This document shows positions 1 to 5,499 of a DNA stretch of 64,000 bases, in pieces. Every line of letters begins with the position of its first letter. Position 1 is the stretch's first letter. The notes under the pieces are model-generated. The model worked only from the letters and a program-made list of their open reading frames with translations. It did no database searches and had not been told where the DNA came from. Location of the stretch: contig NZ_CP017415.1 in assembly GCF_001753245.1 (NCBI RefSeq), positions 1,764,501-1,828,500 on the forward strand, given 5' to 3'. The DNA comes from Acidihalobacter yilgarnensis (GTDB lineage Bacteria; Pseudomonadota; Gammaproteobacteria; DSM-5130; Acidihalobacteraceae). Made by a program: the position numbers and the translations under genes.

Positions 1-1170
1 AGAGACAAGCACCTCGTCATCTATGGCAGCTCGAAACAGGGTAAAACCTCGTTGAGGAAGCACTGTCTGCGTGACGACGATTACATAACCGTGCACTGCT
101 CCAATAAGTGGGATATTGCAGCTCTACACGCTGCAGTGCTCAAGAAGGCGGGTTATGAGGTCACACAGGGGACGAGCAAAACGGTCACCGGCCGACAGAA
201 GATATTTGCCAAGTTAACCGCCTCATTTCTAGCAGGTAAGGCAGAAGGCGGGGCGGAGGCCGAGCGTACCAAGCAAGACCGTGTGGACACGGCGCCGTTG
301 GAACTCGACCCGGAGGATGTCAACGACATTATCCAGGCTTTATGCAGCATTGGCTTTACGAAATTCATCGTGCTCGAAGATTTTCACTATCTATCAACTG
401 AGACACAGAAGGATTTCTCAGTCGCCTTGAAGGCATTCCACGAGAATTCCAAGCTATGCTTTATTGTAATCGGCGTCTGGCTGGAAGAAAACCGCCTGAC
501 TGTATACAACGGTGATTTGACTGGCCGCGTCACGCCCATTAATGCAGACAAGTGGACTCCAGAAGAACTAGATGCAGTCGTTAAATCCGGTGAGGCACTG
601 CTGCATGTTTCATTTGCTCCAGATTTCAGGGATCACGTGATCGCTAACTCGTTTGACAGTGTCTACATTCTTCAGGAGGCGTGCTATAGGTGTTGCGTGG
701 CCGAAGACGTCAATCAGACGCAAAATCAACACAAAGAAATCGGTAGCACACAGCGCAGTGACGAGATTATCCGGACCGTTGTAAACCAGCAGACTGGCCG
801 CTTCAATTCATTCCTGACACAGTTTTCTGACGGTTTTCAGGACACACAGTTGCAAATGTATCGGTGGCTTCTGTATCCCGTGCTGCTGGCGTCTCGCGAG
901 GAACTAGAAGTGGGCCTCCGCCTAAACGCGATCAGGAGGTCCATGCAGACCAAACATCCGCAAGGCAGCTCGCTAAACCCGGGTAATATCACGCAGGCGC
1001 TGCAATCTGCAGCGGCATTACAAGTAAAGAAGGACATTAAGCCCATCATTTTGGACTACGATCAGACAAACCTGCGACTTAATGTTGTCGACAAGGCCTT
1101 CTTGATCTGGCTTGAGACGCAAGAACGCAAGGACCTCCTTGAGTTGGTTGATCTTCCGACAGACTGTTGA
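1..1170 (+). CDS. P-loop ATPase, N-terminus beyond the window edge
   Basis: The reading frame is open from base 1, so the gene starts upstream of the window. The first codons give LVIYGSSKQGKTSL, a Walker A motif; a start at the TTG at 52 would cut through it. A Walker B-like stretch, FIVLEDFHYL, is encoded near 364-396, about 110 residues later, as expected for an AAA+/STAND-type NTPase. The rest is helical and polar with no membrane segment. No family can be named from sequence alone. Such stand-alone ATPases are common in genomic islands and defence loci, and a tRNA-Ser-like att fragment lies 565 bp downstream, so an accessory or defence role is possible but inferred. Its stop codon lies inside the left arm of an inverted repeat (1167-1193), so the C-terminus may have been changed by an insertion. 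Confidence 0.75.
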   Translation, partial: RDKHLVIYGSSKQGKTSLRKHCLRDDDYITVHCSNKWDIAALHAAVLKKAGYEVTQGTSKTVTGRQKIFAKLTASFLAGKAEGGAEAERTKQDRVDTAPLELDPEDVNDIIQALCSIGFTKFIVLEDFHYLSTETQKDFSVALKAFHENSKLCFIVIGVWLEENRLTVYNGDLTGRVTPINADKWTPEELDAVVKSGEALLHVSFAPDFRDHVIANSFDSVYILQEACYRCCVAEDVNQTQNQHKEIGSTQRSDEIIRTVVNQQTGRFNSFLTQFSDGFQDTQLQMYRWLLYPVLLASREELEVGLRLNAIRRSMQTKHPQGSSLNPGNITQALQSAAALQVKKDIKPIILDYDQTNLRLNVVDKAFLIWLETQERKDLLELVDLPTDC

Positions 1171-1334
1171 TCCGGCCTGATTTATCCGCGATTCATGCTG
1201 CCTATTTTGCGCTGCATATTGGAAGAGCTTTTTCACTCGTTCGGACGATTTTCCCACCGACTGCAGGTGCTCAGTTGCAACAGCTTTCAACTTGGCCGTG
1301 GTGCGCAAATCACGGATAAATAAGGCCGGATCAA
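1167..1334. repeat. 27-bp imperfect inverted repeat bounding 168 bp
   Basis: The arms at 1167-1193 and 1308-1334 are reverse complements at 25 of 27 positions and are separated by 114 bp. The left arm contains the stop codon of the preceding ATPase. The geometry resembles a small non-autonomous element or the relic of an IS end. I see no transposase and no clear target-site duplication. A very long-looped transcript hairpin is the alternative. Confidence 0.6.
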
Positions 1335-1734
1335 TAGTTGCTCTAGCAAGCGGCTGCACAACGAACGCGCTGCCGCGCACCGGTGAGCCGGGGCATTGAA
1401 CGACCGCTGTTGGGCTGCAGAGCCGACGGCTTGTTAGCAGTACGCTACTGGCTGGCCTGGGTCGAACTGAGACGAAATTGGGAGACTGTTAATTGCAGCC
1501 GCTCAGCCATTCTCAGGCAGCGGCCGTTATATTTTGTTACATGGCGGATCTTCTGATGGAAGCAGCCAGTGACCGCAAGGAAGATGTTTTGAAGCTATTC
1601 GTAAAGCGCGATTGACAGATCAATGTTCTTTGTGGATATTAGCCAATTAAACTGATACGCCAGAGTGGTACACTAGTCGAGTTAAGCGTTCTTGTAACTT
1701 ATTGATTATATGGGTATTGTATCTGGATATCCGG
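1335..1734. other. No gene seen; presumed distal end of a genomic island
   Basis: I see no reading frame with protein-like composition in this 400 bp. The last part (about 1600-1730) is noticeably AT-rich compared with the flanking chromosome, as is common beside integrase attachment sites. No integrase is present on this side. Confidence 0.5.
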
Positions 1735-1753
1735 ATTCCCTCCCTCTCCGCCA
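1735..1753 (+). other. tRNA-Ser 3'-end fragment, candidate att site
   Basis: The run CCCTCCCTCTCCGCCA (1738-1753) matches the 3' strand of the T-stem, the acceptor stem and the GCCA end of proteobacterial tRNA-Ser genes whose 5' end is GGAGAGG. No 5' part of a tRNA is present, so this is a fragment. A duplicated tRNA 3' end is the usual mark left when an integrase-borne island inserts into a tRNA gene. It would mark the junction between the accessory DNA to the left and the glgB side of the chromosome. Confidence 0.55.
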
Positions 1754-1887
1754 TTTCACCTTCGCATTACCAGGCTCCAAGGCGTCTGGAAACCGTGTGT
1801 ACTGGATCAGGCGGTTGGCGATCATAGCAGTTCAGGGCGCCTAGTCCAGCCCGGCAGGCAGCCGGCAATCGTCGCGTGCGGCAAATA

Positions 1888-4065
1888 TCAATAAACGAGC
1901 TCCAGAACCAGTAGCCCGAGTGGTGGTAGTTGTAAACTGATCGACTGATCGCGTCCCATCCATGGTGTCTGTTCGGTATGGACAACAGGTGGGTTGCCAA
2001 GGTTGGTGCCACCGTAATACGCCGAGTCAGAATTTAGTCGTTCGCGGTAGGTGCCCTGTTGTGGCGTGCCAATGCGATATTGCTGACGTGGAATCGGCGT
2101 AAAATTACACACGATGAGTAGATGTCCCCCCGCATCATCGTGGCGTATAAAGCTGATCACCGATTGGGCGGCGTCATGGCAGTCGATCCACTCGAATCCT
2201 TGCCATTCGAAGTCTTGCCGATATAACGCGGGGTACTCGCGGTATAGATGGTTGAGATCTCTGATAAGCGTATGAATCCCTTGATGGGGTGCATATTGCG
2301 TGACGTACCAGTCCAGTTGGGAGTCGAAATCCCACTCTGAACCTTGCCCGAATTCACAACCCATGAATAATAATTTTTTGCCTGGGTAGGTGAACATGAA
2401 GGCATATAGCAGGCGAAGATTAGCGAAGCGTTGCCATTCGTCTCCCGGCATTCGATAGAGTAGTGAGCGTTTGCCGTGGACCACTTCATCATGAGAGAAG
2501 GGGAGGATGAAGTTTTCCGTGAATGCGTACAATAAACCGAATGTCAGTTGATCATGGTGATAATGGCGATGCACTGGATCTTTACTGAAATACTCCAGGA
2601 TGTCGTGCATCCATCCCATGTTCCATTTCATGGCAAAACCAAGGCCGCCGAGATCTGGCGGCCGGGTGACTTGCGGCCATGCGGTCGATTCCTCGGCGGT
2701 GATCAACACGCCAGGGTGATTGCCTTGCACCGTGGTATTGAGTTCGCGCAAAAATCCGAGCGCATCTAAATTTTCATTGCCGCCGAATTTATTAGGTAGC
2801 CAGTCTCCTGGGTCTCGGGAATAATCGAGATACAACATGGAAGCCACGGCGTCGACACGTAAACCATCAATATGGAATTCCTCAACCCAAAACATCGCAC
2901 TTGAGATCAGGAAATTGCGCACCTCATTGCGACCATAATTGAATATGTAGGTGCCCCAGTCACGATGCTCGCCCAATCTTGGATCGGCATGCTCATATAA
3001 GGGCGTGCCATCGAAGCGTGCTAAGGCATGCTCATCGCGAGGGAAATGCCCTGGAACCCAGTCAAGCAGGACGCCTATGCCGGCCTGATGCAGGCAATCA
3101 ACCAGATATCGGAAATCATCGGGATTGCCAAATCGGCTGGTGGGAGCGAAATATCCAGTGGTCTGATATCCCCATGAGGCATCCAGTGGATGCTCGGTGA
3201 TGGGTAGCAGTTCCACATGCGTGAAACCTAATTCCAACACATAGGCCGTTAACTGCTCAGCTAGCGTGCGATAATCCAGGAAAAGACCCTGTTCATCCCG
3301 CCGCCATGATCCCAGGTGAACCTCGAAAATCGACATCGGTGCGTGTAGCCATTCGCGGGATTTTCGCGTGGCGAGCCATGTCTCGTCGCCCCAAGCATAC
3401 TCACTGTCTGCGACGACGATACATGCGGTTTCGGGCCTCACCTCAAACTGGCGGGCATAAGGATCTATCTTGGTGACTACTCGTCCGCTCTGAAGATTTC
3501 TTAGCTCAAACTTGTAGAGACATCCTGGAGCTAGGTCGGGGATGAACAGTTCCCAGAGCCCGCTGCTGCCACGCACTCGCATGGGATGACAGCGGCCGTC
3601 CCAATGATTGAAGTCGCCGATCACACTGACACGTTCTGCGTTTGGCGCCCACACAGCGAAACGTATGCCGGTGACACCATCCGTCATCCAGGGATGTGCA
3701 CCCAGAATGCGATAGGCATGCCAGTGTTTGCCGGTGTTGATCAGCTGCAGGTCGAATTCGCTTAGCTGTACAGGGAAGGCGTAAGGATCGTGCCGCGTAA
3801 AGGCTTCCCCGGAGGCTTCTTTCCAGTGCAATAGCGGATGAGCGGGCAGGTCGGCGGGCTTGCCGTACCACTCGAAAAGACCCGGCGCCTGATTTACCGG
3901 TGAGAGAGGGAGTCTGTTTTCTCCGATCCAGGCGGCAGTTGCATGCGGTAGGAAGACCCTGATTGAGAGGCCATCTGCCGTCTCATGGCGTCCGAGGCAG
4001 GTGAATGGATCATGATGGCTGGCCCGCAGGACGCGGGTGATATCTTCGGAAAGTACGTTTGTCAT
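1888..4065 (-). CDS. glgB: 1,4-alpha-glucan branching enzyme GlgB
   Basis: 725 residues, the usual GlgB length. The enzyme cuts alpha-1,4 chains and re-attaches them by alpha-1,6 bonds during glycogen synthesis in the cytoplasm. An N-terminal N1 domain and a CBM48 module (about 120-230, with FAVWAPNA and GDFNHWDG) precede the GH13 barrel. The three catalytic residues fall at D405 (GLRVDAVA), E458 (TAEES) and D526 (SHDEVVHGK), the same numbers as in E. coli GlgB. The C-terminal all-beta domain is complete. It is transcribed away from glgC, with a shared 168-bp control region (4066-4233). It is the first clearly chromosomal gene after the putative island junction. Confidence 0.96.
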
Positions 4066-4233
4066 ACCAGCTTAATCCTTGCCATGTCTCGATTGACGTG
4101 CGAGATTGTAATCAGGTGTCGACTTCCAGTACGCTTTTGATGCAAGTGAGTCTAGCACGATGCTTCCCGAGGTCGATTCGGGGCCGCGACCGATGTTTAT
4201 GCTCCCATCCCATGAGTGATAGGAACCGGCAAC

Positions 4234-5499
4234 ATGAAAGTGCAGTCGCAACGCTTCGTCAGCCGCCTGACCCGCGACACCCTGGCGCTGGTGCTAGCGG
4301 GTGGTCGGGGGGCTCGCCTGAAGGATCTGACGTGCTGGCGTGCCAAGCCCGCAGTTCCCTTTGGCGGAAAATTCCGCATTATTGATTTTCCCTTAGCCAA
4401 TTGCATTAATTCAGGTATTCGCCGTATCGCGGTTTTGACGCAATATAAGGCGCATTCCCTGATTCAGCATGTGCAGAAAAGATGGGGGTTTCTGCGCGGT
4501 GAATTCAACGAATTTGTCGAGATATGGCCAGCTCAACAACGCGTTGATACATCATGGTATGCCGGTACAGCCGATGCGGTTTATCAGAACCTGGACATCA
4601 TCCGCGAGCACGACCCAGAGTACATTCTGATACTCGCCGGCGACCATATCTACAAAATGGATTATGGCGAGATGATTGCCTACCATGTCGATACCAATGC
4701 AGACATGACTGTTGCCTGTCTTGAGGTCGGACTCGATACGGCTAAGGCATTCGGCGTGATGGCCTGCGATCAAGCTGGGCAGGTCTACGACTTCCAGGAA
4801 AAACCTGAGAATCCACCGCCGATGCCAGGCGCCTCAGACCGCGCGCTGGCATCCATGGGTGTCTATGTTTTTAATGCATCATTTTTGTATGAGCAACTCG
4901 TGCGTGATGCGGATATGTCCAAATCGAAGCATGATTTCGGTCAGGATATCATTCCGCACATTGTGGGCAGGTATCGAGTCATGGCCTTCCCATATAGAGA
5001 TACTCAGACAGACACTCAGGCCTATTGGCGAGATGTCGGCACCGTGGATGCCTACTGGGCTGCGAATCTTGAGCTGATCGGCATCACGCCGGAGCTCAAT
5101 TTATACGACCAGGACTGGCCTATCTGGACCTACCAGGAACAACTCCCTCCGGCGAAATTCGTATTCGATGACGATGACCGACGAGGCATGGCTGTAGATT
5201 CCATGGTGTCAGGCGGCTGCATCATATCCGGCGCATTGGTCCGGCATTCACTCCTGTTTTCGAATGTCGCGGTGGATTCCTATGCCTTGATCGAGGATTC
5301 CGTCATTCTGCCCGATGTGCACGTCGGCAAAAATTGCCGTATTAAGCGCGCCGTCGTAGACAAGGGATGCCACGTGCCAGACGGCATGGTGATCGGCGAA
5401 AACATCGAACAAGATGCCCGCCGCTTCCATGTTTCGCCTGGCGGCGTGGTCTTAGTTACCTCCGATATGCTGGGAGCACCTCGTCGCCGTGCCCGATAA
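4234..5499 (+). CDS. glgC: Glucose-1-phosphate adenylyltransferase GlgC
   Basis: 421 residues from the ATG at 4234, which follows an AGGA at 4221-4224; an in-frame GTG at 4216 is less likely. The enzyme makes ADP-glucose from ATP and glucose-1-phosphate, the committed step of bacterial glycogen synthesis. The nucleotidyltransferase motif [10 protein letters not shown] lies at residues 20-29, followed by [14 protein letters not shown], which contains the allosteric-site lysine region of the family. The GDHIYKMDY and [10 protein letters not shown] motifs and a C-terminal left-handed beta-helix with hexapeptide repeats are visible. It overlaps the next gene by 11 bp, so the two are probably translationally coupled. 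Confidence 0.95.

What the first reader, a model, noticed from the sequence alone, without database searches (positions are those of the whole stretch)
1..1753. Genomic-island edge: truncated ATPase, inverted repeat and tRNA-Ser fragment
The sequence shows a P-loop ATPase of no recognised family, a gene-poor AT-rich stretch and a 16-nt match to the 3' end of tRNA-Ser genes with no 5' half, next to ordinary glgB. A duplicated tRNA 3' end is the standard scar of tyrosine-integrase islands. Inference: DNA left of 1753 is accessory, and the ATPase may belong to a defence or mobile system continuing off the window.
Basis: partly seen in the sequence, partly recalled or inferred. Interest (0 to 1): 0.6.

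Follow-up and report, generated by a model that had tools for sequence, protein, structure and literature searches.

The report
tRNA-Ser genomic island with candidate defence ATPase
The left end of this window is the right-hand end of a 48.7-kb piece of foreign DNA that a tyrosine integrase inserted into a serine-tRNA gene, and its last gene encodes an ATPase of an untested candidate anti-phage family; the island type is ordinary, the ATPase is the part worth testing.

Summary
An intact tRNA-Ser(CGA) gene lies 48.7 kb upstream, followed directly by a 533-aa tyrosine integrase. The tRNA's last 17 nt plus the next base recur exactly at window 1737-1754. A same-genus relative has the empty site (tRNA-Ser, then glgB); another carries a different 8-kb element there; the first carries an 11.6-kb element with a nearly identical integrase in its tRNA-Ser(GGA) gene.

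The "gene-poor stretch" resolves into two parts: a 168-bp IS630-type MITE (the inverted repeat), which seems to have replaced the ATPase's stop codon, and the element's conserved right terminus (1490-1753).

The ATPase is cut only by the window edge (436 aa in the genome). It is not unrecognised: it matches PADLOC candidate PDC-S59 (E 5e-67). The family is widespread in bacteria, archaea and proviruses, has no fixed partner gene, often stands alone beside housekeeping genes, and in one genome sits inside an Hma defence operon. Its predicted fold is an Orc1/Cdc6-STAND-like AAA+ core without a sensor or effector domain. An anti-phage role is plausible but untested. Overall: a new member of a known kind.

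The parts
1..1170 (+). 3' part of the cargo ATPase gene (residues 48-436 of 436; the gene starts 141 nt before the window, C1:1764360). PDC-S59 family; Walker A GSSKQGKT, Walker B-like IVLEDFHYL
1163..1338 (.). IS630-type MITE: inverted terminal repeats 1163-1193 / 1308-1338. Inferred element 1167-1334 (TTGATCC...GGATCAA), target duplication TA (1335-1336; left copy decayed to TG, 1165-1166), inserted in a CTAG that probably formed the ATPase's original stop
1490..1753 (.). Conserved right terminus of the integrative element, 93% identical over 264 bp to the right end of the element in the same-genus genome G001
1654..1675 (+). Pair of 9-bp direct repeats (GATACGCCA-4-GGTACACTA, 13-nt period), also present just inside attL; putative integrase arm-type or excisionase sites (inference)
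1737..1754 (+). attR core: duplicated tRNA-Ser 3' end TCCCTCCCTCTCCGCCA+T; right boundary of the 48.7-kb island whose attL is the tRNA-Ser(CGA) gene at C1:1717437-1717529
1888..4065 (-). glgB, the chromosomal right neighbour of the island (adjacent to tRNA-Ser in the empty site of G001)

Best explanation
Window 1-1753 is the right end of a 48.7-kb genomic island (C1:1717530-1766253). A tyrosine integrase encoded just inside its left end recombined an 18-nt core in the 3' end of tRNA-Ser(CGA) with the same core on the element. This kept the tRNA gene whole on the left and left a displaced 3' fragment on the right, next to glgB (arrangement shown by comparison; the reaction itself is inferred). 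The last cargo gene before attR encodes a 436-aa ORC/STAND-clade AAA+ ATPase of PADLOC candidate family PDC-S59. An IS630-derived MITE later inserted at its stop codon, changing D-stop to D-C-stop and leaving the protein essentially intact (inferred). Most likely function of the ATPase: a single-gene NTPase switch acting against phages or other mobile DNA, which would bind ATP and DNA or an invader component and oligomerise (inferred from fold and context, untested; my confidence in this functional part alone is about 0.5). The confidence given is for the island and its boundaries.
For: Intact tRNA-Ser(CGA) upstream and duplicated 18-nt core. A 533-aa integrase, Pfam Phage_integrase above cut-off with HxxR and late HY motifs, starts 94 nt after the tRNA. 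Empty site in G001: the tRNA-Ser 3' end is about 170 bp from the glgB end. G002 has a different element at the same tRNA with its own displaced fragment; G001 has a 98.7%-identical integrase region and a 93%-identical right end at tRNA-Ser(GGA). G003 (another genus) has a related integrase beside the same tRNA. ATPase: PDC-S59 E 5e-67; absent in the four nearest relatives; 201 related stretches across bacteria and archaea and 56 IMG/VR loci. One homologue lies between HmaA (10-nt overlap) and HmaB (43-nt gap). Other neighbours include TIR (PDC-S35), OLD/AriA-like and type I restriction-like proteins. AlphaFold pLDDT 90.9; best structural matches 2qen Z 19.2 and 2fna Z 17.6, then Orc1/Cdc6, CED-4, NLRs.
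Against: No excision or phage assay exists. Many ATPase homologues sit beside housekeeping genes (thyX, nrdB, icd, uvrB, ffh) and not in clear defence islands, and the PADLOC neighbour tally has no matched control. The fold resemblance is remote (9-13% identity). The GC difference between island and backbone is small (55.3% vs 58.6%).
Confidence: 0.95

Rival explanations
1. The tRNA-Ser fragment is a chance or decayed remnant and the region is ordinary chromosome that relatives lost.
For: Only an 18-nt match, and only a small GC shift.
Against: Integrase next to the intact tRNA, exact core, empty site in G001, and independent elements with the same attR arrangement in G001 and G002.
Confidence: 0.02
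2. The ATPase serves the element itself (replication, partitioning or transposition regulator like TnsC, MuB, TniB or Cdc6) and not defence.
For: The fold is close to Orc1/Cdc6, TnsC and MuB; weak Pfam TniB and AAA_22 similarity.
Against: The genomes with sister elements, G001 and G002, lack it; homologues occur singly beside housekeeping genes without a recurrent partner and inside an Hma operon.
Confidence: 0.2
3. The GIY-YIG-like 176-aa ORF just upstream (C1:1763750-1764280) and the ATPase form a two-gene nuclease-ATPase system.
For: Same strand, 79-nt gap, GLY...YIG...E...N motif residues shared with a Rhizobium relative.
Against: The homologue loci analysed show no recurrent upstream partner; no Pfam match; the single-sequence model is uninformative (pLDDT 32).
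Confidence: 0.1

Closest known systems
tRNA-targeting tyrosine-integrase genomic islands (the kind catalogued by Islander, PMC4383910)
   Same: Intact tRNA at one end, integrase beside it, displaced tRNA 3' fragment at the other end, empty site in a relative.
   Different: No difference in principle. Nearly the same integrase is found at two tRNA-Ser isoacceptor genes that share the 17-nt end.
PADLOC PDC-S59 (unvalidated phage defence candidate, single gene)
   Same: HMM match over most of the profile (E 5e-67, positions 36-399 of 428).
   Different: Nothing distinguishing found; this copy has an inferred MITE at its stop codon.
STAND/ORC-clade AAA+ ATPases (Pab2304 2qen, SSO1545 2fna, Orc1/Cdc6, CED-4, NLR-type switches)
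   Same: P-loop AAA+ core plus C-terminal helical/winged-helix-like region in the predicted model (Z 13-19).
   Different: Only 436 aa: no room for separate sensor repeats or an effector domain; 9-13% identity.
IS630-family MITEs
   Same: Near-identical terminal repeats, TA flanks, another copy, IS630-type transposases in the same genome.
   Different: Short (168 bp); the left TA reads TG.

Membership tests
tRNA-targeting integrase island | Tyrosine integrase gene adjacent to an intact target tRNA | tested here: met
   C1:1717623-1719224 next to tRNA-Ser(CGA) 1717437-1717529
tRNA-targeting integrase island | Displaced copy of the tRNA 3' end at the far boundary | tested here: met
   18-nt exact core at window 1737-1754
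tRNA-targeting integrase island | Empty site in a relative | tested here: met
   G001: tRNA-Ser followed by glgB about 170 bp away
tRNA-targeting integrase island | Excises and integrates | not testable with these tools
   Needs attachment-site junction PCR or reads
ICE/IME (self-transmissible or mobilisable element) | Relaxase and/or conjugation genes | tested here: inconclusive
   None seen among the roughly two dozen island ORFs scanned with Pfam; not all ORFs were scanned. The related G002 element has KfrA_N and Replic_Relax proteins
PDC-S59 | Match to the PADLOC model over most of its length | tested here: met
   E 5e-67, profile positions 36-399 of 428, for the part inside the window
PDC-S59 | Anti-phage activity | not testable with these tools
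   Bench assay needed; no paper in the library searched names PDC-S59
STAND NTPase | P-loop AAA+ core followed by a winged-helix-like region | tested here: met
   Walker A residues conserved in 62 homologues; VIA-align Z 19.2 to 2qen over 325 residues
STAND NTPase | Separate sensor repeats and effector domain | tested here: not met
   436 aa, almost all covered by the ATPase-type matches; so it is not filed as a full STAND sensor
IS630 MITE | Terminal inverted repeats shared with an IS630 transposon, no transposase, several copies | tested here: met
   Copies at C1:1447463-1447634 (92%) and, as the end of a transposase-bearing element, 2144282-2144425 (75%; 347-aa ORF). The family is judged from likeness to the DDE_3/HTH_33 protein at 1760938-1761861
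IS630 MITE | TA target-site duplication | tested here: inconclusive
   The second copy has TA on both sides; here TA on the right, TG on the left

The most novel reading that the evidence does not exclude
PDC-S59 is a minimal, single-gene anti-phage ATPase (an ORC/STAND-like core without recognisable sensor or effector domain) that works alone across bacteria and archaea and spreads as cargo of integrative elements and proviruses.
Probability: 0.4. Interest if true: 0.6.

Novelty: new member of a known kind. Interest (0 to 1): 0.35.

Why it matters
The island is a clean, fully bounded example of tRNA-Ser integration, with an empty site and two sister elements in the same genus, so the integrase's target choice (two tRNA-Ser isoacceptors sharing one 17-nt end) can be compared directly. 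The cargo ATPase is a widespread protein that no curated general family describes beyond a weak AAA match. The data gathered here (fold, conserved residues, an Hma-embedded homologue, spread into archaea and proviruses) make its function directly testable with one gene.

Tried and rejected
Rfam on 1-4300: nothing, so the inverted repeat is not a known RNA. ATPase in phage records (tblastn): none. A conserved partner gene of the ATPase: rejected, as clustering of the nearest neighbours gave no family with more than two members. GIY-YIG-like neighbour: no Pfam, NCBIfam or PHROG match and an uninformative single-sequence model. Naming the organism Acidiferrobacter: dropped because reported GC is about 63.6% (PMC8889020). 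No relative of the MITE in plasmids or in the four related genomes.

Full report
Position and boundaries. The window is G000:C1:1764501-1828500 of a single-contig, 3,566,941-bp genome. The displaced tRNA fragment at window 1737-1754 (C1:1766237-1766254) shares 18 exact nt with the end of an intact tRNA-Ser(CGA) gene (and the base after it) at C1:1717437-1717529 on the same strand. The 14-mer CTCCCTCTCCGCCA occurs exactly three times in the genome: two tRNA-Ser genes and this place. Shuffled versions of the first 1800 nt never matched the tRNA end by more than 12 nt (2000 trials). The two copies bound 48.7 kb.

Integrase and empty site. A 533-aa ORF starts 94 nt after the tRNA. It carries DUF6538, SAM-like and Phage_integrase domains, the last above Pfam's cut-off, and HxxR plus a late HY motif. 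In the same-genus genome G001 the tRNA-Ser(CGA) gene is followed about 170 bp later by the end of glgB, with nothing inserted. In same-genus G002 the interval is 8.3 kb. It holds a related integrase gene split by an IS21-like pair, a KfrA_N protein, a Replic_Relax protein and its own displaced GGAATCCCTCCCTCTCCGCCA next to glgB. G001 carries an 11.6-kb element in its tRNA-Ser(GGA) gene. Its integrase region is 98.7% identical to ours, a further 2.2 kb is 98.8% identical, and its right end is 93% identical to window 1490-1753; the rest of the cargo differs. In the other genus of the family, G003 has a related integrase (59%, one stop) beside the same tRNA. All three elements compared have a pair of 9-bp repeats with a 13-nt period inside each end (GGTACACCA-4-GGTACACTA and variants), found nowhere else in the stretches searched; I infer arm-type binding sites.

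What the gene-poor stretch is. The inverted repeat (1163-1193 / 1308-1338) is the pair of ends of a short element with a 92% copy at C1:1447463-1447634. A 75% similar stretch at C1:2144282-2144425 forms the end of an element encoding a 347-aa transposase-like ORF of the same type as the island's DDE_3/HTH_33 (IS630-type) transposase. Read as an IS630-type insertion at TA in CTAG, the pre-insertion sequence would be GAC TAG, so the ATPase originally ended ...LPTD-stop and now ends ...LPTDC-stop. This step is inferred: the left TA now reads TG. Window 1490-1753 is the element's own right terminus.

Cargo. Pfam matches inside the island include GGDEF and EAL proteins, two ECF-type sigma factors, an MbnB/TglH/ChrH protein, a histidine-specific methyltransferase with an FGE-sulfatase/DinB protein, two pyridine nucleotide-disulphide reductases, a DUF3641 radical SAM protein, an MFS transporter and several transposases. 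No relaxase was seen, but not every ORF was scanned.

The ATPase. The full gene encodes 436 aa. The part in the window matches PADLOC PDC-S59 at E 5e-67; Pfam gives only a sub-threshold AAA_22 match and NCBIfam nothing. It is absent from two same-genus and two same-family genomes. One alignment-based scan found 201 related stretches in genomes across many phyla including haloarchaea, and another found 56 loci in viral contigs. Conserved residues include the Walker A GK, DFHY and NGDL..R. Neighbour clustering shows no fixed partner. Many homologues stand next to housekeeping genes, while some stand beside defence proteins. The clearest is a Clostridia MAG where the gene lies between HmaA and HmaB with a 10-nt overlap and a 43-nt gap. 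Others are next to PDC-S35 TIR proteins, an OLD/AriA-like protein and a type I restriction-like protein. Literature describes PDCs as mostly single-gene candidates found by 'guilt-by-embedding', largely unvalidated (PMC12988326); no paper in the library names PDC-S59.

Fold and mechanism. The AlphaFold model has mean pLDDT 90.9. The best matches are the archaeal ATPases 2qen (Z 19.2, 325 residues, 5.1 A) and 2fna (Z 17.6), then Orc1/Cdc6, CED-4/Dark, NLR resistosomes and TnsC (Z 13-15). The protein is essentially the ATPase plus winged-helix-like core. The most likely mechanism is a nucleotide switch that binds DNA or an invader component and oligomerises; how it would act without an effector domain is unknown.

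Organism.

Verdict. The island claim is established by comparison; the island type is ordinary. The defence role of the ATPase is a reasonable but untested inference.

Noticed in passing
G000 C1:1763750-1764280 (L008:17751-18281): 176-aa ORF with a GIY-YIG-like motif (GLYMV...YIG...), unmatched in Pfam, NCBIfam and PHROGs; 41% identical relative on Rhizobium leguminosarum plasmid pRlX5.
   Followed up: partly
G001 C1:91299-102885: 11.6-kb sister element in tRNA-Ser(GGA) with nearly identical integrase but different cargo (two radical SAM proteins, an IS630-like transposase); a further displaced copy of the tRNA end lies at about 103052, suggesting stacked insertions.
   Followed up: partly
L090 (G002 C1:1837000-1850500): Related 8-kb element whose integrase gene is split by an IS21-like istA/istB pair, so probably immobilised.
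   Followed up: no
C1:1717595-1717616 and window 1654-1675: Pairs of 9-bp direct repeats with a 13-nt period inside both ends of three elements; possible recombinase arm sites.
   Followed up: partly
L091:6626-9318 (G032 C5; same record as L157): A 66%-identical ATPase gene interrupted by an IS110-like transposase gene.
   Followed up: no
G000 C1:1733655-1734218: MbnB/TglH/ChrH-type RiPP-modification protein in the island, matching only part of the family profile in its best stretch.
   Followed up: no
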